From an uncultured Geobacteraceae bacterium (lineage in GTDB: Bacteria > Desulfobacterota > Desulfuromonadia > Geobacterales > CAIOGM01): a stretch of DNA of 32,296 nucleotides. The notes under the pieces were generated by a model that was given only the letters and a program-made list of their open reading frames with translations, was not told the origin of the DNA and did no database searches. Location: contig CAIUUR010000043.1 of the NCBI GenBank assembly GCA_903902345.1, forward strand, positions 1 through 32,296. The letters run 5' to 3'. The position numbers were made by a program, and so were the translations under genes. Numbering within the stretch: position 1 is the stretch's first letter; each line of letters opens with the position of its first letter. Of this stretch, positions 19,044 to 31,361 are shown piece by piece.

Positions 19044-20258
19044 ATGAAAAATAACATCCAGGATTTAGCGCTGTTTGGCGGCGCCCCATCATTTGCCACA
19101 CAACTCCATGTCGGTCGCCCCAACATCGGTAACCGGGAAACGTTGCTGTTGAGATTCAATGATATTCTCGATCGAAACTGGCTGACCAATAACGGACCCT
19201 ACGTTCAGGAATTTGAACGGAAAATCGCCGACTACCTTGGGGTCAGGCATTGTATCGCCCTCTGTAACGCCACGGTGGCGCTGGAAATTGCCACGAGGGC
19301 GCTTGGTCTGAAGGGGGAGGTCATTGTTCCTTCTTTCACCTTCATCGCCACTCCACATTCATTGCAATGGCAGGAAATAACTCCGGTTTTTTGCGATATT
19401 GATCCGGCCACCCATAACCTTGACCCGACTTGCGTTGAAAGGCTGATCACGCCACGCACGACGGGAATCATCGGCGTTCACCTCTGGGGGCGCCCCTGTC
19501 CCGTTGAAGCTCTGGCCGAAATCGCCCATAGGCATGACCTGAAGTTGATGTTCGATGCCGCTCACGCCTTCGGATGCTCACATGGGGGAAAGATGATCGG
19601 CAATTTCGGCAGCGCCGAAGTCTTCAGCTTTCATGCGACCAAGTTCTTCAACACCTTCGAGGGGGGAGCCATTGTCACCAATGATGACGATTTGGCCGCC
19701 AAGATCCGGTTGATGAAAAATTTCGGTTTCGCCGGGTACGATAAGGTGGTCTATATAGGCACGAACGGGAAAATGCCGGAAATTAACGCCGCCATGGGGT
19801 TGACCGGTTTGGAAAGCCTTGACGACTTCATTGAAATTAACAGGAGGAATTACCGGCAGTACTCAGCCGGTTTGTCAGGAATCCCGGGTATTACGCTGGC
19901 CGGTTTTGACGATCAGGAAAAGAGTAATTATCAGTACGTCGTCCTGGAAATAGACCCGGAAAAGTCAGGCCTGCATCGGGATAAGCTTATTGAAATTCTT
20001 CATGCTGAAAACATCATGGCGCGGAGGTATTTCTATCCGGGGTGCCATCGGATGGAACCGTATCGCTCCTATTTCCCCCATTCATACCTGCTCCTTCCCG
20101 AGACGGAGAGATTGTGCGGCAGGGTAATGGCGTTGCCGACGGGGCAAGCGGTGAGTAGCGCCGACATTGTCACCATATGCCAAATTATCGGATTGGCTAT
20201 TGAGCGTAGCGTTGAGATCGCAACCCATGCAGGTATCGGGGTTCGATATGAAGCTTAG
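19044..20258 (+). CDS. VioA-like dTDP-4-keto-6-deoxyglucose aminotransferase (DegT/DnrJ/EryC1)
   Basis: 404 aa PLP enzyme. The N-terminus LFGGAPSFATQLHVGRPNIG and NWLTNNGPYVQEFERK are those of VioA-type dTDP-Qui4N transaminases. PSFTFIATPHSLQW, FDAAHAFG (Asp171) and the Schiff-base Lys200 in SFHATKFFNTFEGG are intact. It should aminate dTDP-4-keto-6-deoxyglucose to dTDP-4-amino-4,6-dideoxyglucose, which the acyltransferase just upstream can acetylate. The 3' end overlaps the next GT2 start. A second, partial copy of this gene's last 55 codons occurs at 22677-22844. Confidence 0.9.
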   Translation: MKNNIQDLALFGGAPSFATQLHVGRPNIGNRETLLLRFNDILDRNWLTNNGPYVQEFERKIADYLGVRHCIALCNATVALEIATRALGLKGEVIVPSFTFIATPHSLQWQEITPVFCDIDPATHNLDPTCVERLITPRTTGIIGVHLWGRPCPVEALAEIAHRHDLKLMFDAAHAFGCSHGGKMIGNFGSAEVFSFHATKFFNTFEGGAIVTNDDDLAAKIRLMKNFGFAGYDKVVYIGTNGKMPEINAAMGLTGLESLDDFIEINRRNYRQYSAGLSGIPGITLAGFDDQEKSNYQYVVLEIDPEKSGLHRDKLIEILHAENIMARRYFYPGCHRMEPYRSYFPHSYLLLPETERLCGRVMALPTGQAVSSADIVTICQIIGLAIERSVEIATHAGIGVRYEA

Positions 20259-21159
20259 CGTGGCCATGATAACTTATAATCATGAGATGTATATATCCCA
20301 GGCATTGGAGAGCATTTTGGCGCAAAAGGTCGATTTCGACTATGAAATCGTAATCGGGGAGGATTGTTCCACCGATAGCACCAGAGCAATTGTTAAGGAT
20401 TACCGGCAGAAATACCCTGATATCATAAGATTGCACCTTCCCGATACGAACAGTGGCATGATGTGCAATTTTATGAGAACTTTCAATAGTTGTTCCGGAG
20501 AGTATATAGCCTTGTTGGAGGGTGACGATTATTGGACCGACCCTTTTAAACTTCAAAAACAAGTTGATTTTCTCGATAAAAACCTCGATTTTACCGTCTG
20601 TCACCATAACGTTGTCGTTAAAAATGAAGATTATCCGGAGAGAAACAGGCGGCAAAACGGAGCAGAAACGCCGGAAATTTCCGGGTTGGATGATCTGTTG
20701 ACAAAAGGAAATTTTCTCGCTACCGCCTCGGTTATAATCAGGGCCAATGCGATCGGCGAAATTCCCGATTGGTTTATAGGTTTACCCTTTGGTGATTATC
20801 CTTTATATCTTCTCGCGTCACAATTCGGGAAGATCCGTTATTTAACCGATATAATGGGAGTTTATCGAATTCATAAAGGTGGAGTACATGGCCATTTAAC
20901 AAATTCACCGGATACACTCACAACTGCGTATGAGTTGCACTTTGAGTTTTGGCGGAAGATTGCTATTACGGGGTTGTTTGAGGCTGACAAGTTAACTTTT
21001 CCGATACTTGAGTCGCTTCAAAATGTTATCAATAATGCAGCTAAGGCGAAACTGACTAAAGTTTTTTTGAAATACAATTTTTTATTTTTACGGTATGCCG
21101 GAATTAAAGAATCTAAGAAAGTTACCCGTCAGATCATTCAATATTGCAAAGCTAACTGA
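20248..21159 (+). CDS. Family 2 glycosyltransferase, paralogue of the gene at 22851
   Basis: 303 aa from the ATG at 20248; an in-frame ATG at 20227 is equally open and is matched by the start of the paralogue, so the start is uncertain. The GT-A core reads LSVAMITYNHEMYISQALES, then IGEDCSTDSTRAIV and LLEGDDYWTDPFKLQKQVDF. PDWFIGLPFGDYPL and GVYRIHKGGVHG close the catalytic part. The first 110 or so residues are nearly the same as those of the protein at 22851, while the later part is much more different. It overlaps the aminotransferase by 11 bases. It probably adds one sugar, perhaps Qui4NAc given the context (inference). Confidence 0.9.
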   Translation: MKLSVAMITYNHEMYISQALESILAQKVDFDYEIVIGEDCSTDSTRAIVKDYRQKYPDIIRLHLPDTNSGMMCNFMRTFNSCSGEYIALLEGDDYWTDPFKLQKQVDFLDKNLDFTVCHHNVVVKNEDYPERNRRQNGAETPEISGLDDLLTKGNFLATASVIIRANAIGEIPDWFIGLPFGDYPLYLLASQFGKIRYLTDIMGVYRIHKGGVHGHLTNSPDTLTTAYELHFEFWRKIAITGLFEADKLTFPILESLQNVINNAAKAKLTKVFLKYNFLFLRYAGIKESKKVTRQIIQYCKAN

Positions 21160-22391: not shown

Positions 22392-22420
22392 GGTGATTAG
22401 CGACAAAAAGCATACCAACT
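22392..22420 (+). repeat. Single terminus of the MITE-like element
   Basis: GGTGATTAGCGACAAAAAGC and the next bases ATACCAAC closely match the reverse complement of the right end of the 168-bp element at 27691-27858 (GGTGATTTGCCGCAAAAAAC then ATACCATC). It starts at the base after the GT4 stop codon and is followed by an unrelated hairpin repeat. No matching right terminus was found downstream. Confidence 0.6.
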
Positions 22421-22423
22421 GCC

Positions 22424-22495
22424 TGTCATCCTGAGCAACGCGAAGGATCTGCTTTTCAAACAGAAGCAGATTCTTCGCTATCGCTCAGAATGACA
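22424..22495 (+). repeat. Interspersed hairpin repeat (TGTCATCCTGAGC type)
   Basis: Two near-complementary arms, 22424-22454 and 22464-22495, start and end in TGTCATCCTGAGC...GCTCAGAATGACA around a nine-base loop. Arm sequence of this type recurs in intergenic regions of many environmental bacteria, from memory. It could fold as a long RNA hairpin at the end of the GT4 transcript, although no U-tract follows, so a terminator role is unproven. Confidence 0.75.
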
Positions 22496-22600
22496 TCTTT
22501 TGAAATTGTCAAGATGATGTCCAGCGCTTAGAGACGCGTTGTCCGACGAGGGTATCCGTAGTAGTAAAGGGTTGCTCCGCCGATGACTGCAAAGCAAGCG

Positions 22601-22672: not shown

Positions 22673-22676
22673 AGCG

Positions 22677-22844
22677 ATGGAACCGTATCGCTCATATTTC
22701 CCCCATTCATACCTGCTGCTCCCGAAAACGGAGAGATTGTCCGACAGGGTGATGGCGTTACCCACCGGGCAAGCGGTGAGCAGCGCCGATATTGTTACTA
22801 TCCGCCAAATTATCGGATTGGCCATTGAGCGGATGTTGAGATAG
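22677..22844 (+). pseudogene. 3' fragment of the VioA-like aminotransferase gene
   Basis: The last 55 codons of a second copy of the aminotransferase at 19044 (matching 20052-20220). It reads MEPYRSYFPHSYLLLPKTER and on to AVSSADIVTIRQIIGLAIER, then stops at TAG. It stays open in the original frame with mostly conservative differences. It precedes the paralogous GT2 by six bases, exactly as the intact gene precedes its GT2. It is therefore the left flank of a duplicated segment. Confidence 0.88.
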
Positions 22845-22850
22845 CCACTC

Positions 22851-23825
22851 ATGCAGGTATCGGGTCATAATGTGAAGCTGAGTGTCCTGATGGTGACCTA
22901 TAATCACGAAAAATTCATATCCCAGGCGTTAGAGAGCATTCTGACGCAGAGGGTTGGTTTCGACTATGAAATCGTGATCGGGGAAGACTGCTCCACGGAT
23001 AGCACCAGAGCCATTGTCATGGATTATCGGCAAAAATACCCTGATATCATAAAACTGCTACTCCCCGATAATAACAGGGGGATGATGTGTAATTTTATGA
23101 AAACTTTTGAAGCCTGTTCCGGAACGTATATTGCGATGCTTGAGGGGGACGATTTTTGGACCGACCCTTTCAAGCTGCAAAAGCAGGTAGATTATCTGGA
23201 TTCGCATCCCGAATCAGTCGCTTGTTTTCATAATGCTCAAATTGAATATGAAAATGAGCCTGGAAAGCAGAATTTTTTTCATGCTACCCAAATGAAAGAT
23301 TCGTACACGCTTCTGGATATTTTGAACGAATCCATTATCCCGACCTGCTCAACAGTGTTTCGTGCCGGTCTCTTTGGTATGTTTCCCGACTGGTATTCAT
23401 CTATGCCCATGGGAGATTGGCCACTGCATGTGATGAACGCACAACACGGCGATTACGGGTATCTTGCCGAGGTAATGGCAACCTATAGAGTCCACGATGG
23501 TGGCGTATGGTCGTCGCAAAAACGTATCGACATCCTTTCCAAAACCATATTCGCACGGGATGTAATACGAAACTACCTCGGCTGCAGTTATAAGACTATA
23601 GTTAACATTAAAACAGCGGGACTCTACGACGAGAAGGTGTCCATCGAATATGGCGATCTAAATGTTGTAAAGCTTGCCGTGGCAGCTTTTTACTCGCTCT
23701 ACAACTATCCCGATTACACCAGGTTTGTTTCGCACAGAAGGACTTTTTTAAACTGTGTCAGAAGGAAAGTCGGCCTGCGAACATTTTTAAGGGCTAAACT
23801 CCGCGCCGTCAAAATGATTCGGTAG
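22851..23825 (+). CDS. Family 2 glycosyltransferase, paralogue of the gene at 20248
   Basis: 324 aa from the ATG at 22851; a GTG at 22872 would match the shorter start of the paralogue. The core is LSVLMVTYNHEKFISQALES, then IGEDCSTDSTRAIV and MLEGDDFWTDPFKLQKQVDY. Downstream, PDWYSSMPMGDWPLHV and TYRVHDGGVWS mark the acceptor side. The N-terminal third is very close to the 20248 protein, but from about residue 125 identity drops sharply. This suggests different acceptor or linkage specificity after duplication or recombination. It sits directly after the duplicated aminotransferase tail. Intact and probably functional. Confidence 0.9.
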   Translation: MQVSGHNVKLSVLMVTYNHEKFISQALESILTQRVGFDYEIVIGEDCSTDSTRAIVMDYRQKYPDIIKLLLPDNNRGMMCNFMKTFEACSGTYIAMLEGDDFWTDPFKLQKQVDYLDSHPESVACFHNAQIEYENEPGKQNFFHATQMKDSYTLLDILNESIIPTCSTVFRAGLFGMFPDWYSSMPMGDWPLHVMNAQHGDYGYLAEVMATYRVHDGGVWSSQKRIDILSKTIFARDVIRNYLGCSYKTIVNIKTAGLYDEKVSIEYGDLNVVKLAVAAFYSLYNYPDYTRFVSHRRTFLNCVRRKVGLRTFLRAKLRAVKMIR

Positions 23826-24763: not shown

Positions 24764-25678
24764 GTGATCAGTACTCTCCCGGATATTTCCATAATTATGC
24801 CTGCCAAGAACGGCAGTCCGCAGATTGGCAGAGTTTTAGAGGCTGTCTTTAACCAGAAGTGCGCTCTGAGCTATGAAGTAATTGTTGTCGACTCCGGCTC
24901 TGTTGACGATACTCTGGAAATAGTTCGGCGCTATCCTGTCCGTTTACACTGTATCTCGCCGGAGGAGTTCAGTCACTCCCGTACCCGCAATTACGGTGCG
25001 CGTCTTGCTACTGCCACCCGCTACCTTGTCTTTCTCAACCAGGATGCTCTTCCCACTGATGACCAGTGGCTTGCCAATCTGGTCAGGAGTATGGAATTAT
25101 TCCCTGATCTCAAGGCGGTATGCGCCACGGAGTTGACGGACGACGGAAACTACTTTAATGTGTACGGCGTTGCATCGTATGTGTTTCAAACTTCGTGCAC
25201 TCGTGGCGTGCATGTCATCGAACCGCACGTTTTGGAGAGATGTCAACTTCTCACCAAGCCGGAGCAGCGGGCGCTCTTTCCGTTCACGACCGTTTGCGCC
25301 ATCTTTGATCGACTTCATTTTCAGGAACGCCCTTTCAATGAAGACGTATCGTGGGGCGAAGATCTGCATTGGGCCGTGAAGAATTCAGCGGACGGTTATG
25401 CTTCCGGTTGTAGCTCCCTGGCCCGTGTCTATCACTACCATGAGTATACGGAAGAGGAAGAAGGGATCAAGTTTTTCCATTTAAAGCGCCTCTATGGTGA
25501 GTTATTCGAGTGGTCGCTGGCGGGGAGCGAAGACGGTGACCCAGCCACAGAAAAAGAAGATGGGAGTGCTCCGTTTTTCTTGAGAGTGGCTATTTTCCTG
25601 ACAGTCAAAGCCTTATCACTGCTTGGTCGCGTGCATTCCTTTCTCCTGAGCTGTGCTGATGACTGGGTGCGTTCTTAG
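24764..25678 (+). CDS. Rhamnosyltransferase-like family 2 glycosyltransferase
   Basis: 304 aa from a GTG at 24764; upstream in-frame starts as far as 24656 overlap the methyltransferase and give a non-homologous leader. The GT-A fold reads ISIIMPAKNGSPQIGRVLEA, then VVDSGSVDDTLEIV and the metal motif LNQDALP. SHSRTRNYGARLATATRYLV is typical of RfbF/WbbL-like rhamnosyltransferases. SWGEDLHWAVK is the putative catalytic-base region. A second, 3'-only copy of this gene lies at 28735-28916. Intact here. The sugar transferred is likely a deoxyhexose, which is a family-level inference. Confidence 0.88.
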   Translation: MISTLPDISIIMPAKNGSPQIGRVLEAVFNQKCALSYEVIVVDSGSVDDTLEIVRRYPVRLHCISPEEFSHSRTRNYGARLATATRYLVFLNQDALPTDDQWLANLVRSMELFPDLKAVCATELTDDGNYFNVYGVASYVFQTSCTRGVHVIEPHVLERCQLLTKPEQRALFPFTTVCAIFDRLHFQERPFNEDVSWGEDLHWAVKNSADGYASGCSSLARVYHYHEYTEEEEGIKFFHLKRLYGELFEWSLAGSEDGDPATEKEDGSAPFFLRVAIFLTVKALSLLGRVHSFLLSCADDWVRS

Positions 25679-25727
25679 TACACCGTCCTGTTTGACATTT
25701 CGCAGTTTGTGCCGTAATTTTGAGGCG

Positions 25728-25802
25728 GTCGACCGTCTTATTGCGGACGGATACTCGGTACGTGTTTTAGACAAGTACCCTGAACGATACCGGGTACCCT
25801 TG
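25728..25802 (+). pseudogene. Fragment of the NAD-dependent epimerase gene, 5' region
   Basis: 75 bases align without gaps to 28996-29070 of the intact epimerase (VDRLVADGHSVRVFDKYPER region). It lies 50 bases after the GT2 at 24764 and breaks off at a stop shortly after (TTCTGA at 25815). The remaining intergenic DNA, 25679-25727 and 25803-25894, has no recognisable gene. It marks the place where a GT2-epimerase pair lost its second gene. Confidence 0.85.
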
Positions 25803-25894
25803 CTTTATGGGCAGTTCTGACAAACATGAATATTAAAATATCGGATGGTACTGAGGGTCGCAATAACATTAATAAGGTGTGAGGCAGGCGGAGA

Positions 25895-27049
25895 ATGGCC
25901 GAACGAGCTGTCTGTACGGTGATTACAAAGAGTTTTCTGTCTCATGCGAGAATGCTTGCACACTCCATTGCGCAGCATAATCCAGGGCTAAAATTATACG
26001 TACTTCTGGCGGATCACGTCGACGGTTACTTCGATCCGGAAACTGAAGATTTTGAACTGATAACCCTTGATTGCCTTGCAGATCAAGAACTAGTCCAAAA
26101 GATGTGTTTTTACTATACACCTTTTGAGCTCTGCTGCGCATTGAGAGGACTTCTTCATAAATACATGTACGATGAAATAAAAGCTGAACGATGGATATTT
26201 TTGGATTCCGACATCATGGTATTCGGCTCACTGGACAGACTGTATAAACAGCTTGAATGTTGTTCTCTGGTTCTTTCACCGCACATCAGAGTTCCTGTTG
26301 AAATTGACTTCTGCTATCATGAAATAAATATACTTTCTTCCGGATTATACAATGGCGGTTTTCTTGCTTTACATCGGGATGATAACGCCCGGAAATTTAT
26401 AGAGTGGTTTGCCGGCAGGTTGTATCGTTATGGCTTCAATGATTTGCATTCCGGGTCGACAAGAGGGCTTTTTGTTGACCAGAAATGGCTTGATCTGGTT
26501 CCTTTGTATTTTAACGGTGTGGGATATTTGACTGAACCAGGGGCTAATCTGGCTCATTGGAACCTTTATGAACACAACCTCTGCGTCGATCAGGGGGGGA
26601 ATATTTCTGTTGATGGCGAGCCGCTTCTTTTCGTGCATTTCAGTGGATTGGATTTGAATCAAACCGGTAACGTCTCGATCCATTCCAAAATGTACGACGG
26701 GCTGGAGTTGCCCGTCTGGAAAATGGTAGCGGACGCCTACCGCGATAGCCTTATCATGTTCGACCATGGGAATGTCGTATCATACCCGTATGCTTTTTTG
26801 ACGTTCCAATCGGGCGAGGTGATAGAGGCGGCGTCGCGCAGGGGATATTATGACGGGACGACCTCGGTTGATTTACTGTGGGATTCACCGTTCCTCAAGT
26901 CAAACGCGTTTTTCTGTGAAAAAATCAATGATGTGTCGGAGTATCCTGAAAAAGTCGGCCTATTGAGTCGATCCAAGAGGATAGCGTATAATGGTTTGGC
27001 CGAAATCGCTCGCCGCGCTCGTGGTGCGTTTTCGGAAGATAGCCGGTAA
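25895..27049 (+). CDS. GT8-like (GT-A) glycosyltransferase, nucleotide-diphospho-sugar transferase fold
   Basis: 384 aa. The start is the ATG at 25895, with GAGGCAGG about nine bases upstream. The N-terminus AVCTVITKSFLSHARMLAHS and the metal-binding DSDIMVF (preceded by RWIFL) are those of GT8-type and related retaining GT-A enzymes. LYNGGFLALHRDD follows, then VDQKWLDLVP and LAHWNLYEHN, which form the conserved substrate pocket of this polysaccharide-locus family. HFSGLD near residue 250 is a probable metal-ligand His. The 3' end (RRARGAFSEDSR) is duplicated as a scrap at 30986-31058. It probably adds a hexose to the repeat unit. The gene at 31373 is a relative. Confidence 0.85.
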   Translation: MAERAVCTVITKSFLSHARMLAHSIAQHNPGLKLYVLLADHVDGYFDPETEDFELITLDCLADQELVQKMCFYYTPFELCCALRGLLHKYMYDEIKAERWIFLDSDIMVFGSLDRLYKQLECCSLVLSPHIRVPVEIDFCYHEINILSSGLYNGGFLALHRDDNARKFIEWFAGRLYRYGFNDLHSGSTRGLFVDQKWLDLVPLYFNGVGYLTEPGANLAHWNLYEHNLCVDQGGNISVDGEPLLFVHFSGLDLNQTGNVSIHSKMYDGLELPVWKMVADAYRDSLIMFDHGNVVSYPYAFLTFQSGEVIEAASRRGYYDGTTSVDLLWDSPFLKSNAFFCEKINDVSEYPEKVGLLSRSKRIAYNGLAEIARRARGAFSEDSR

Positions 27050-27115
27050 CGCTGGCAGAGATTCGCGTTTGCACCTGAAGTTTGAGAATAATAGACGTAG
27101 TTACGGAGTGAAACC

Positions 27116-28005
27116 GTGCGAGTGGCGATCTGGCATAACCTTCCTTCCGGCGGTGGTAATCGGGCGCTTCACGATCAGGTCCGAGGATTGGTCGCCCGTG
27201 GGCACCACGTGGAGATCTGGTGCCCACCGACTGCCAACCGCTCATTCCTCCCCCTTGGTGATATCGTCACGGAACATGTCGTCCCGCTGGACGAGCACCG
27301 GCGTCCCGCCAAAGGTCGAGTCGATCATTGGCTGAAACCGTATCGGGAGACGATTGCTTCCTACGAGGCCATGGACCTTCACTGTCAGGCGTGCGCCGCG
27401 GAAATTAATGCCGGCGGATTCGACCTGCTACTGGCCCATCCCTGTGTATTCTTTCGGGCAAGTCCCATTGGTCGGCATGTTAAGCTCCCCAAAGTGCTTT
27501 TCCTGCAAGAGCCCAAACGGGAGTTGTACGAGGCTGCACCGCGACTTCCCTGGGTTGCTCTGCCCGCTCCAACCGGTCGTCCATCGGTAAGTTATGGGAA
27601 ATGGTTTCTTCACGACTTGATTCATGTCCAGTCACTGAGGGTTCAGGTGCGTGAAGAGTTAGCCAACGCCAGCGCGCGACGGTGAAGTTAGGTGATTCGC
27701 GGTAAAGACGATACCGCTTCAATGTATTTGTCACGTTTTATTGTAGGGATACCCCTTGCGGGTATCCTGTTCTTGAATCGGCACCCAAGGGCGCCCGCAA
27801 GGGGCGCCCCTACAAAACAACGTTCAGAACGATGGTATGTTTTTTGCGGCAAATCACCTTACTGCTGATGAGCCGTGAGAAGGCGGTCGAGCTCGGGCGG
27901 AGCGCCCGACTGCAGGTGGAATCCCTCTGGAGCCTTGAGGCGTCCATTGATCGCCTCGAATCGCGACTTCAGATGTTTCTGGAGTCAAGGCGCGTTCCTA
28001 ATTAG
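27116..28005 (+). pseudogene. Family 4 glycosyltransferase, broken by stop, internal loss and a MITE-like insertion
   Basis: The 5' part (27116-27685, GTG start with CGGAG upstream) encodes 189 residues of the GT4 N-terminal domain (VAIWHNLPSGGGNRALHDQV) and ends at a TGA. Five bases later a 168-bp palindromic element begins. After it, 27862-28005 encodes 47 residues of the C-terminal end (MSREKAVELGRSARLQVES and SLEASIDRLESRL). The central half of the protein, with the donor-binding motif, is missing, so no catalytic GT4 can be made. The N-terminal fragment could still be translated. A similar C-terminal scrap sits at 31209-31361. Confidence 0.8.
27691..27858 (+). mobile_element. MITE-like palindromic element, 168 bp
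   Basis: Terminal inverted repeats begin GGTGATT and end AATCACC and extend imperfectly over about 27 bases. A direct TTA flanks both ends (27688-27690 and 27859-27861), as expected for a target duplication. An inner inverted repeat (TTGTAGGG at 27741 with CCCTACAA at 27808) makes most of the element one long hairpin. There is no coding capacity, so movement would need a transposase supplied elsewhere. It lies inside the remains of the GT4 gene. Confidence 0.7.
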
Positions 28006-28054
28006 CGCAATGTCGTCTCGCCACTATTCACCCGTGGTTTTACTGCTAATGTTG

Positions 28055-28083
28055 TTGACAGATTATCGCCAGCGTAACATGAT
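28055..28083 (+). promoter_or_regulatory. Possible sigma-70-type promoter for the nucleotidyltransferase gene
   Basis: TTGACA at 28055-28060 and CATGAT at 28078-28083 are separated by 17 bases. The -35 box is perfect and the -10 box matches four of six. It is about 110 bases before the ATG at 28195. The surrounding 28006-28194 stretch is AT-rich and otherwise empty. Position and composition are reasonable, but nothing else supports it. Confidence 0.3.
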
Positions 28084-28194
28084 GTTTACAATAGCAACGC
28101 GCAATTATGGCTTTTTACGGCAATTCAGCGCCCTGTTTACATCAAATATTAGGTGCGTACTCAGTGGGATAATTCTTACGGTGGAAGGATTATA

Positions 28195-28524
28195 ATGGAA
28201 TTAGCAGAACTTAAAAAAAAGATCATTTCTCTACTGGGGCCACTTGACCCAGAGAAAATCATTCTGTTCGGAAGCTACGCTTGGGGGGAGCCTACCGATG
28301 AGAGTGATATTGATTTGTATATTGTTACCAAGGATTCAATTTTGCCTCGTAGTTACCAGGAAAGAAGTGAAATCAACCTGCGATATGCTCGTGCAATCTC
28401 GGATTTGGTCGGGTTGGTTCCTGTTGATCTGATAGTTCATACTCGTCCAATGCATGAAAGATTTATTGAAGTTGATAGTATGTTCAGTAGAAAAATCCTT
28501 CAGTCCGGGGTATCTCTCGTATGA
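28195..28524 (+). CDS. MNT-type minimal nucleotidyltransferase (antitoxin-like)
   Basis: 109 aa from the ATG at 28195 with GGAAGGA eight bases upstream. The polymerase-beta nucleotidyltransferase core is clear: LFGSYAWG (Gly26-Ser27), then ESDIDLYIV with Asp38 and Asp40, and a third acidic strand VDLIV near residue 89. Such small proteins are usually encoded next to a HEPN-domain protein. In characterised HEPN-MNT pairs the MNT partner neutralises the HEPN RNase by adenylylation. Here the ATGA overlap leads into a decayed HEPN gene, so this looks like an antitoxin without a toxin. Not part of glycan assembly. Confidence 0.85.
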   Translation: MELAELKKKIISLLGPLDPEKIILFGSYAWGEPTDESDIDLYIVTKDSILPRSYQERSEINLRYARAISDLVGLVPVDLIVHTRPMHERFIEVDSMFSRKILQSGVSLV

Positions 28525-28646
28525 GATACGCAACTGCGTAATGGTTGAAAGCAGGGGAGCTTGATCTGAGAACAATGGAAAACTCCTTTGCTTTTTCTGT
28601 TGAATTATACGAACGAACACAAACGTTGCCGGCCTCGTCAGTGTGA
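28521..28646 (+). pseudogene. Decayed HEPN-domain gene
   Basis: It starts at an ATG overlapping the nucleotidyltransferase stop and reads MRYATA, a TAA at codon 7, then WLKAGELDLRTMEN. That segment resembles the first helix of HEPN proteins that pair with MNT proteins. After about 20 more unrelated-looking codons the frame ends. The RX4-6H catalytic motif region is absent. The gene is therefore dead by both a nonsense codon and truncation. The bases 28647-28734 hold nothing I recognise. Confidence 0.6.
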
Positions 28647-28734
28647 TTTGTGGAGGCACACAGAAACTTTAAGCTGGATAAGGCGCTGATATCCTACGCG
28701 GCTTGAATATATGGGTTCATCTCAGACAAATCTC

Positions 28735-28916
28735 TGGGCAATTATCGATTGGTTGCTGGGGGTGGCGAAAATGGCGGACTAAACCCTGAAAATGAATATG
28801 GTAACGCTCCGCGCCTCTTGCGAGTGGCTATTTTTCTGACAATTAAAGCCGAATCTATCCTTGGTCGCGTGCATTCCTTGCTCCTGAGGTGTTCTGTACG
28901 GCGGGCAAGTTCGTAG
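28735..28916 (+). pseudogene. 3' fragment of a GT2 gene related to the one at 24764
   Basis: Aligns with the last 180 or so bases of the GT2 at 24764, ungapped from about 28800 (offset 3238), down to the TAG stop at the same position (25676 and 28914). The shared protein text is LRVAIFLTVKA and LGRVHSFLL in the intact copy. No 5' part of the gene is present. It ends 19 bases before the intact epimerase and is the mirror image of the arrangement at 24764-25802. Confidence 0.85.
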
Positions 28917-28935
28917 TTGGGGGGGGGGACTCGTG

Positions 28936-29874
28936 ATGAATGTAAAGCAAAATATCCTGGTCATGGGCGGTAACGGATTTATCGGATCACACCTAGTCGA
29001 CCGTCTCGTTGCGGATGGACACTCGGTGCGCGTTTTCGACAAGTACCCTGAACGATACCGAGCACCCTTGACGGAAGTAGAGTATCATTACGGTGATTTC
29101 GGTAACCGGGGCCTCCTGGGTGAGGCTCTGCGGAATATCGACACCGTTTATCATCTTATCAGCACTTCTCTTCCGAAAACGTCCAACGACGATCCGGCAT
29201 TTGATGTGCAGTCAAACGTCATAGAGACCATTTTTCTGCTGGAACAGTGCCTGGCGCAAAAAATTTCAAAATTTGTCTTTGTCTCTTCCGGAGGGACCAT
29301 TTACGGCAGACCGGAACGACTACCCATAGCCGAAGACGCTCCCACAAACCCGGAATGTTCCTACGGGATTACCAAGCTGACCATCGAAAAATATCTGGCT
29401 CTTTACCACCATCTGCACGGACTTGATTACCTCATTGTGCGACCGTCGAACCCTTATGGTTCCCGGCAGGACCCCCGGGGAATTCAAGGCGCCATAGCCG
29501 TTTTTTTGGGCAAAGTTGCGGGCGGTGAACCGATTGTTGTCTGGGGCGACGGCGAGGTGGGGCGTGATTATATCTATATTGATGATCTGGTGGAAGGAAT
29601 AGTTCGTGCAGTCGGAACTCCCTCCCAAAGCCGGATCTTCAATCTGGGGAGCGGCGTCTGCGTGTCTTTAACACAACTAATCGAAATCATTGGCGATGCT
29701 ATCGGTTCGATCGTCGCGGTGCACCATGCTCCCGGCAGGGGATTCGATGTGCCGCAGATACGGTTGGATATCACCCGCGCCCGTAGGGAACTTGGCTGGA
29801 ATCCGGAAACGAGCCTGAGAGACGGTGTTTTGTCGATGTATGACTTTATCAGGTCGGCAGTGAAAAGCAGCTGA
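28936..29874 (+). CDS. NAD-dependent epimerase/dehydratase (GalE/WbpP-like extended SDR)
   Basis: 312 aa; the ATG at 28936 follows an in-frame GTG at 28933, with a G-rich tract upstream. The Rossmann motif is MGGNGFIGSHL, with FVSSGGTIYG (active-site Ser) and YGITK (catalytic Tyr and Lys). RPSNPYGSRQDPRGIQGAI and GDGEVGRDYIYIDDLV are hallmarks of UDP-hexose 4-epimerases and relatives. It probably supplies a UDP-galactose-type or similar sugar to the transferases around it. Two broken pieces of homologous genes occur at 22601 and 25728, so this is the only complete copy in the window. Exact substrate unknown. Confidence 0.88.
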   Translation: MNVKQNILVMGGNGFIGSHLVDRLVADGHSVRVFDKYPERYRAPLTEVEYHYGDFGNRGLLGEALRNIDTVYHLISTSLPKTSNDDPAFDVQSNVIETIFLLEQCLAQKISKFVFVSSGGTIYGRPERLPIAEDAPTNPECSYGITKLTIEKYLALYHHLHGLDYLIVRPSNPYGSRQDPRGIQGAIAVFLGKVAGGEPIVVWGDGEVGRDYIYIDDLVEGIVRAVGTPSQSRIFNLGSGVCVSLTQLIEIIGDAIGSIVAVHHAPGRGFDVPQIRLDITRARRELGWNPETSLRDGVLSMYDFIRSAVKSS

Positions 29875-29987
29875 TTCCTCGGATGTATTCGATAGTACGG
29901 AGAATAGCTGTTTCAATAACGTCGTGCGCAAAAATTACGGGTTGCTTGAAAGCTGTATGAATAAATGATTATAAATGTGGAGCTTAT

Positions 29988-30923
29988 GTGCAAAAAATAG
30001 ATAAAATAGTTATAGTCTGTCATAAAGGGATACTCTGGCTGACCCAAATTTGTATAGCCAGTATCAGATATTGGTATCCTGATCGTGATATTTATATCGT
30101 TAAAGACCTATACGGTGGTAATTTTGATACATCCGAACTGGAAAGATATTGGAATGTAAAAGAACTTGTGATTGAAGACAAGAAATACGGATCATCTCTT
30201 TCCAAGCTTGGTTTGTATGTATTGAAAGAAAAACAAAAAATTTTAGCTCTTGATGCAGATATACTCTTTGTAGGCGAGGTGATGGACGTTTTGGATTCAT
30301 CCGAATCTGAATTCGTGGTGAACGCTGATGACTATGAATCACCTGGCTCTGACTGGTTTTCAGAAATGTATTACAATTATGATAAACTTAAGCATGTAGA
30401 TCCCGATTTCATTTTTCCAAAGTATGCTTTTAATGGTGGTCAAATAGTTTTAACATCTGGTCTCCTGTCAAAATCAGATTTTGAACCATTTGTTGAATGG
30501 AACGGGATACCCTGTATGGCTAAAAAGTATGGAGATATGTTTTTTTTTGAACAAGGTTTGTTGAATTATCTTCTTCCTAAGTATGAGTCCATAGGGAGAT
30601 TTTCGATGAGTAGATTGAAATTCATGTTGTGGTCTAACCACGATGAGACTAAGGAAATTGATTTGCGTGGTATAAAAAACAAAAAAAGTATTCCTTATAT
30701 GATCCACTGGGCAGGGACAGTCAGGCCGAATATCTCTGAAATGACACGGAGTGATATCGTATCGTTTTATCAGAAATTTTACTATAGCAGGATTCCGTTT
30801 GGGGGCGTTAGGAGGGTCGCATTTAATGTATGGCGTGAATTACGTTATGGCAGAGCAACGCGCTCCCTTAAGCGTTGCTTTCCACAAGGTGTCTTGAAAT
30901 TATTGAAAAAAATTGGATGTTGA
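29988..30923 (+). CDS. GT8-like glycosyltransferase, AT-rich
   Basis: 311 aa from the GTG at 29988, with TGGAG five bases upstream. The GT-A fold begins KIVIVCHKGILWLTQICIAS, and the metal motif is LALDADILFVG. YAFNGGQIVLTSGLL, then DMFFFEQGLLNYLLPK and MIHWAGTVRPN make up the rest of the pocket. These features place it with the GT8-like/nucleotide-diphospho-sugar transferases of this locus, but sequence similarity to the genes at 25895 and 31373 is low. It is markedly AT-richer than the epimerase before it, which points to a separate origin. Donor and acceptor are unknown. Confidence 0.8.
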   Translation: MQKIDKIVIVCHKGILWLTQICIASIRYWYPDRDIYIVKDLYGGNFDTSELERYWNVKELVIEDKKYGSSLSKLGLYVLKEKQKILALDADILFVGEVMDVLDSSESEFVVNADDYESPGSDWFSEMYYNYDKLKHVDPDFIFPKYAFNGGQIVLTSGLLSKSDFEPFVEWNGIPCMAKKYGDMFFFEQGLLNYLLPKYESIGRFSMSRLKFMLWSNHDETKEIDLRGIKNKKSIPYMIHWAGTVRPNISEMTRSDIVSFYQKFYYSRIPFGGVRRVAFNVWRELRYGRATRSLKRCFPQGVLKLLKKIGC

Positions 30924-30985
30924 TGCCTCATTATAAATGTTGCTATCCTGTGTAACGTCCCACCACGATAATGGCGGACGCTGAG

Positions 30986-31058
30986 AGGGCTTGGTGGAAA
31001 CTACTCGCCGCGCTCGTGGTGCGTTTGCGGAAAATAGTCGATAAGGATCGTTGGGATT
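30986..31058 (+). pseudogene. 3' end fragment of a GT8-like gene
   Basis: It encodes ETTRRARGAFAENSR then TAA at 31049, matching the C-terminus of the gene at 25895 (AEIARRARGAFSEDSR). Similarity continues past the stop through the spacer to about 31105, matching 27050-27115. The GT4 start that should follow is missing: the copy jumps to the middle of the MITE-like element. The bases 30924-30985 show no gene. Confidence 0.8.
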
Positions 31059-31104
31059 TGTGTTTACTGATTAGTTTTGAGTATAATTCAGGCGTAGTTA
31101 TGGA

Positions 31105-31205
31105 GCGGGTATCCTGTTCTTGAATCGGCAGCCAAGGGCGCCCGCAAGGGGCGCCCCTACAAAACAACGTTCAGAACGATGGTATGTTTTTTGCGGCAAA
31201 TCACC
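31105..31205 (+). mobile_element. Truncated copy of the MITE-like element
   Basis: 101 bases identical to 27758-27858 except for one base, by eye. The right terminus AATCACC and the following TTA are kept, while the left 67 bases are lost. It is joined on the left to the spacer that normally precedes the GT4 gene. Confidence 0.75.
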
Positions 31206-31208
31206 TTA

Positions 31209-31361
31209 CTGCTGATGAACCGTGAAAAGTCGGTTGAACTCGGGCGGAGCGCCCGACGGCAGGTGGAATCCCTCTGGTGCCTCGAGGCGTCCATCGATCG
31301 CCTTGAATCGCGGCTTCATAAGTTTTTCGAGTTAAGGATTGGCTGTAACAAATTAACTTAA
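31209..31361 (+). pseudogene. C-terminal fragment of a GT4 gene
   Basis: 50 codons reading MNREKSVELGRSARRQVES then LEASIDRLESRLHKFFELRI and a stop. Paralogous to 27862-28005, with roughly one base in eight different. No other part of the gene remains upstream; the sequence before it is the truncated MITE-like copy. Confidence 0.8.

What the first reader, a model, noticed from the sequence alone, without database searches (positions are those of the whole stretch)
27691..27858. 168-bp palindromic MITE-like element with TTA duplication inside a GT4 gene
It has matching termini (GGTGATT/AATCACC), a flanking TTA direct repeat, an internal inverted repeat and no coding capacity. These features suggest a non-autonomous element moved by a transposase elsewhere in the genome. 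It may be a so far unnamed family.
Basis: partly seen in the sequence, partly recalled or inferred. Interest (0 to 1): 0.65.

Follow-up and report, generated by a model that had tools for sequence, protein, structure and literature searches.

The report
MITE family with interchangeable palindromic cores
The 168-base element is a real, insertion-generated small transposon copy, one of a family found in only one genus of Geobacter-like bacteria, whose members share the same 25-base ends and a 3-base target duplication but carry at least five unrelated hairpin-forming repeats in the middle; no gene that moves them was found.

Summary
Confirmed at 27691-27858, with TTA on both sides. The element is multicopy: near-full copies lie in two other contigs (92-93% identity, TTA/TTA), with about 60 further partial or diverged matches. 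The more telling fact lies outside the coordinates. Its ends are one shared 25-bp terminal inverted repeat, GGTGATTCGCGACAAAGAACATACC, present 69 times in this genome (0 in control) and in two same-genus genomes, but in none of 54 other genomes of the order; an exact scan of 84,980 species found only those two. Between these ends sit at least five unrelated palindromic cores; identity between classes falls to chance at base 26. The window's core is an inverted pair of GTAG-tagged REP hairpins. Of 49 complete elements, 23 have exact 3-bp flanking repeats (10.2 expected; none extend to 4 bp). A sister element in a relative has an empty site with a single TAA in the window's own genome. So it is a MITE-like element, very probably moved in trans by a transposase that makes 3-bp TTA/TAA duplications. 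I found no autonomous partner: the IS5-type and RAYT genes tested do not carry these ends. The GT4 context is a gene remnant, not a clean insertion into an intact gene.

The parts
27688..27690 (.). left copy of target duplication, TTA
   Evidence: sequence; same TTA/TTA at two other full copies C337 and C435
27691..27858 (+). complete MITE-like element, core class A, 168 bp
27691..27715 (+). left 25-bp terminal inverted repeat GGTGATTCGCGGTAAAGACGATACC
   Evidence: 0 mismatches to family end pattern; 25-bp boundary
27834..27858 (-). right 25-bp terminal inverted repeat (minus strand GGTGATTTGCCGCAAAAAACATACC)
   Evidence: 1 mismatch to pattern
27743..27767 (+). first GTAG-tagged REP-like hairpin GTAGGGATACCCCTTGCGGGTATCC
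   Evidence: inverted repeat
27789..27813 (-). second GTAG-tagged REP-like hairpin, inverted orientation (GTAG on the outside)
27859..27861 (.). right copy of target duplication, TTA
31105..31205 (+). truncated second copy of the same element (right part only), part of a segmental duplication 27758-27990 ~ 31105-31337 (93%)
22392..22530 (+). sister element with the same left TIR (22392-22416) but core class B (TGTCATCCTGAGC...); right end degenerate, so the end coordinate is approximate
27116..27685 (+). GT4-like glycosyltransferase N-terminal remnant, stops just before the element
27862..28005 (+). 47-codon tail resembling a GT4 C-terminus, downstream of the element
   Evidence: sequence reading; no Pfam match

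Best explanation
The element is a miniature, non-coding transposon (MITE). It consists of two 25-bp ends that a transposase acting in trans recognises, enclosing an inverted pair of GTAG-tagged REP-type hairpins. Insertion cuts the target with a 3-bp stagger, preferring TTA/TAA, and duplicates those 3 bp. The transposase sees only the ends, so the same ends have become attached to at least five different palindromic cores in this genus, each arrangement then amplified as a sub-family. Shown: shared 25-bp ends, unrelated cores, 3-bp duplications, an empty site for a sister element, copies within one genus only. Inferred: a DDE-type transposase, the mode of movement, and the route by which cores were exchanged. 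Not found: the transposase.
For: Multicopy with conserved ends (69 ends against 0 in the reversed-pattern control). TIR boundary: identity between consensus ends of different core classes is high over bases 1-25 and about 0.25 from base 26. Of 49 complete elements in three genomes, 23 have exact 3-bp direct repeats (permutation mean 10.2, maximum 19 in 20,000; none match over 4 bp; TTA 12, TAA 7, TTG 2, CAA 1, TGG 1). Empty site: a core-F element at G002:C96 is flanked TAA/TAA, while the homologous place in the window's own genome (G000:C381) reads through with one TAA, 86% identity over 538 bp including 38 bp past the junction. Recent spread: core-F copies in the relative are up to 99% identical. 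Genus restriction. Interiors without the TIRs are hairpins in every class, z -2.4 to -8.8.
Against: No autonomous copy: no pair of these ends encloses a transposase in any fetched stretch. Few DDE_Tnp_1 matches in the genus and none with these ends. DDE_Tnp_1_2 and DDE_Tnp_4 gave only one sub-threshold match each, and the IS5-like element found in a relative has a different TIR. 26 of 49 elements lack an exact duplication, which needs decay or recombination to explain. The strongest empty site is for core F, not core A; for the core-A copy at C337, homologues run through the insertion point but with only 7-11 bp beyond it.
Confidence: 0.8

Rival explanations
1. The REP hairpin pair is the mobile unit (a REPIN moved by a RAYT tyrosine transposase), and the outer palindrome is only the target or context it sits in.
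For: The core is an inverted pair of GTAG-tagged hairpins, as in REP dimers. Of 37 core-A hairpins in fetched stretches of own genome, 15 have no TIR near them. Four RAYT-type genes are in the genome. REP dimers inside longer palindromes are described in PMC3733652.
Against: The duplicated 3 bp and the sharp homology boundary lie at the outer ends, not at the hairpins. Five unrelated cores share these ends. RAYT enzymes are not expected to make target duplications (established knowledge of the IS200/IS605 type). The RAYT genes examined are not flanked by this TIR; one inspected in G002 is bracketed by its own inverted repeats (GGGGTCAGGGCTCAACAAT), and the one in C558 by another.
Confidence: 0.1
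2. Old immobile palindromic repeats copied only by segmental duplication and recombination.
For: One copy in the window (31105-31205) did arise in a larger duplication; many copies are truncated.
Against: Unrelated flanks with exact 3-bp duplications, an empty site with single TAA, near-identical copies in different contigs.
Confidence: 0.04
3. The family belongs to an IS4-type element: a remnant with this end lies beside an IS4-like transposase fragment in G003.
For: A TIR-like end lies about 50 bp from an IS4-family transposase fragment.
Against: Full-length relatives of that transposase carry a different end (AATGGCGCTAGTTTAAG), and the same G003 locus keeps that IS4 end on its other side.
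Confidence: 0.02

Closest known systems
Chunjie MITE of Geobacter uraniireducens (Chen et al. 2008, as summarised in PMC10969869)
   Same: Geobacter-type host, non-coding, 178-235 bp, TIRs and direct repeats, many partial copies, one copy in an operon.
   Different: Original paper not held, so end sequences could not be compared. The exact end pattern of the present family was found only in two MAGs of this genus.
GTAG-tagged REP dimers within longer palindromes (Anabaena variabilis GTAG-15; PMC3733652)
   Same: GTAG hairpin dimers enclosed by a conserved outer palindrome, with no empty palindromes found.
   Different: There one core type per outer palindrome and no target duplication stated; here at least five unrelated cores share one outer TIR with a 3-bp duplication.
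TIRtrons / TIRYT (PMC3733652)
   Same: Tyrosine transposase genes flanked by inverted repeats that also occur as dispersed families.
   Different: RAYT/TIRYT genes examined here have other flanking repeats; the present ends flank no such gene.
IS5-family MITEs with 3-bp TNA duplications (recalled, IS1031/ISL2 groups)
   Same: 3-bp duplication of TTA/TAA type, TIR of about 25 bp starting with GG.
   Different: No IS5-type transposase with these ends in the genus.

Membership tests
MITE (miniature inverted-repeat transposable element) | short (about 70-300 bp), non-coding, multicopy | tested here: met
   168 bp; most copies 118-251 bp, a few longer
MITE (miniature inverted-repeat transposable element) | conserved terminal inverted repeats | tested here: met
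   25-bp TIR
MITE (miniature inverted-repeat transposable element) | target-site duplication and empty site | tested here: met
   23/49 exact 3 bp; empty site for a core-F sister
MITE (miniature inverted-repeat transposable element) | autonomous partner with the same ends | tested here: inconclusive
   None found in draft genomes; not all transposase families were searched and contigs break at these repeats. Typical of MITEs, not required
GTAG REP dimer / REPIN | two inverted GTAG-tagged hairpins | tested here: met
   27743-27767 and 27789-27813; describes the core only
GTAG REP dimer / REPIN | cognate RAYT gene flanked by the same REPs | tested here: not met
   Four RAYT genes in own genome; only the C558 gene has a core-A element near, 1.1 kb to one side
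TIRtron (TIRYT element) | the TIR flanks a tyrosine transposase gene | tested here: not met
IS5 family (IS1031/ISL2-type) derivative | 3-bp TNA duplication | tested here: inconclusive
   TTA/TAA dominate, but TTG, CAA and TGG also occur
IS5 family (IS1031/ISL2-type) derivative | related transposase with matching ends | tested here: not met
Chunjie MITE | same terminal sequence | not testable with these tools
   paper not held; exact pattern found in no other named species

The most novel reading that the evidence does not exclude
A modular MITE system: one genus-restricted pair of transposon ends has repeatedly captured unrelated REP-type palindromes as cores, so hairpin repeats normally thought to depend on their own enzyme are spread by a DDE transposase. 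A palindromic core may even be required, since every complete element examined has one.
Probability: 0.35. Interest if true: 0.6.

Novelty: new variant of a known kind. Interest (0 to 1): 0.45.

Why it matters
It is a naturally repeated experiment: the same ends, the same target preference, at least five unrelated hairpin cores. That lets one separate what the transposase needs (25 bp) from what the core contributes, and offers a concrete route by which REP-like palindromes could spread without their own transposase. Two of the cores (B and F) also occur on many unrelated viral-collection contigs; the core-B copies examined there lack these ends.

Tried and rejected
IS4 partner (G003:C18): adjacency is coincidental, the IS4 has other ends. 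IS5-type partner: absent or with other ends. RAYT partner: other flanking repeats. Convergent end pairs with a gene inside: only chance-level ends or neighbouring copies. Rfam: no match in the window. Plasmid and phage collections: no match to the element; an end-only query gives chance hits. My initial belief that all cores are widespread in bacteria was tested: true for B (112 stretches) and F (24), not supported for A (0) or C (1) in the viral collection, and core B is absent from 54 other genomes of the order. Literature searches for core sequences and shared-end MITEs found nothing relevant.

Full report
Observation. The element is exactly where stated: 27691-27858, 168 bp, with TTA on both sides. 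The two 25-bp ends match at 19 of 25 positions as inverted repeats; no other 168-bp interval in the 32-kb window does as well. It folds more stably than any of 200 shuffles and has an internal 30-nt inverted repeat.

Copies. The window is contig 43 of a 4.9-Mb draft genome in 568 contigs. blastn gives 63 matches in this genome, including near-complete copies at C337 (93%) and C435 (92%), both flanked TTA/TTA, and truncated copies, several at contig edges. A truncated copy in the window (31105-31205) belongs to a 233-nt segmental duplication.

The family is wider than the finding. A pattern made from the ends, AGGTGATTNGCGRNAAARANNATACC with up to 3 mismatches, hits 69 places in the genome and none in the reversed-pattern control. 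Pairing them shows elements with the same ends but different interiors: core A (window; GTAG-tagged hairpin pair), core B (TGTCATCCTGAGC...GCGAAGGATCT and its inverted partner), core C (GGGAGCACGGACATCCTGTCCGT...GGGCAGGATGCCCGC), core D (CCCCTCCTAAAATAGGAGGGG...), and in a relative core F (TTCGACAAGCTCAGGGCGAACGG...). A second element in the window itself, at 22392, has core B. One 513-bp copy holds cores B and C together (C415).

The boundary. Taking 49 non-redundant complete elements from three genomes and comparing consensus ends between different core classes, identity is 0.33-1.0 over bases 1-25 (1.0 at bases 1, 2, 5, 6, 9, 10, 14, 15, 18, 24, 25) and about 0.25, chance level, from base 26 onward. 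The shared unit is therefore a 25-bp end, GGTGATTCGCGACAAAGAACATACC, and the interiors are unrelated. The interiors of 19 representatives, tested without the ends, are themselves hairpins (z -2.4 to -8.8).

Insertion. Of the 49 elements, 23 have identical 3-bp flanks, against 10.2 on average when right flanks are permuted (maximum 19 in 20,000). None match over 4 bp, so the duplication is 3 bp. It is TTA in 12, TAA in 7, TTG in 2, CAA and TGG in one each. A core-F element in relative G002 (C96) lies between TAA and TAA; the homologous sequence in the window's own genome (C381) runs straight through with one TAA at 86% identity over 538 bp, 38 bp of it beyond the junction. This is a genuine empty site for the family. 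For the core-A copy at C337, three homologous sequences in relatives pass through the insertion point without it, but only 7-11 bp align beyond, so that is consistent rather than decisive. No empty site was obtained for the window copy.

Distribution. Ends at <=2 mismatches occur in own genome (48), G001 (11) and G002 (127), none in G003 and none in 54 further genomes of the order. An exact scan of 84,980 species genomes finds them only in two MAGs, uncultured Geobacter sp. A14_bin-2059 and uncultured Desulfuromonadales F14_bin-0369; the window's own genome may be left out of that scan. Viral contigs: none. In contrast, core B occurs on 112 and core F on 24 stretches of the viral collection, and none of 104 core-B copies examined there has these ends. 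Core A and core C were not shown to be widespread. Inside the genus, about half of the core-B copies examined lack the ends, and 15 of 37 core-A hairpins do too, so cores also exist free-standing.

Partner enzyme. None identified. No pair of ends encloses a transposase in the stretches fetched. The DDE_Tnp_1, DDE_Tnp_1_2 and DDE_Tnp_4 searches give few matches and none with these ends. An IS4 fragment beside a degenerate end in G003 has its own different ends. RAYT genes examined are not flanked by these ends, except that one lies 1.1 kb from an element copy in C558. Not every transposase family was searched, and the draft genomes may hide a multicopy IS at contig ends, where many copies of the elements lie.

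Gene context. The GT4-like frame upstream ends at TGA 27683-27685, before the element, and only a short C-terminal-like tail follows it; the middle is missing. The element sits among remnants in a glycosyltransferase cluster with segmental duplications.

Known comparisons. Chunjie, a MITE of Geobacter uraniireducens of 178-235 bp, is the nearest described element by host and form; its sequence could not be compared. GTAG REP dimers enclosed in longer palindromes are reported for Anabaena variabilis. I found no report of one TIR carrying several unrelated REP-like cores, in an open-access library only.

Verdict. A real, unnamed MITE-like family; ordinary in kind, unusual in that one set of ends carries several unrelated palindromic cores. 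Membership in any IS family is not claimed.

Noticed in passing
window 25522-27990 and 28760-31337: Successive segments of a polysaccharide gene cluster are duplicated (epimerase, glycosyltransferase, GT4 tail, element), and the second copy is joined within the element after a deletion.
   Followed up: partly
window 20051-20510 and 22676-23134: A second duplicated pair in the cluster: aminotransferase tail plus start of a family-2 glycosyltransferase gene (79-88% identity).
   Followed up: no
window 27691-31205: Left end of the first element and right end of the truncated copy face each other, both with TTA outside, 3.5 kb apart; in principle a composite unit.
   Followed up: no
L209 1-130 and 290-1290: A RAYT gene in relative G002 lies beside core-F hairpins without the 25-bp ends, and is bracketed by its own inverted repeat GGGGTCAGGGCTCAACAAT, fitting the published GGGGWSAS motif.
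   Followed up: partly
L211 1000-2100: A CRISPR array (repeat GTTTCAATCCTCGCCCGCCCTTTCGGACGGGCGCTAC) next to a RAYT gene in G002.
   Followed up: no
L298 3800-5400: On an unrelated viral-collection contig, core B alternates with another GTAG-tagged hairpin (GTAGGGACCGGCCTCCGGACGGTCC) in a mosaic array.
   Followed up: no
L014 1502, L020 1571, L034 1606: A further core variant (GTAGGGGCACCCC...GGGCGACCGCAAGGGATCGCCCCTAC) with the same left end but no recognisable right end.
   Followed up: partly
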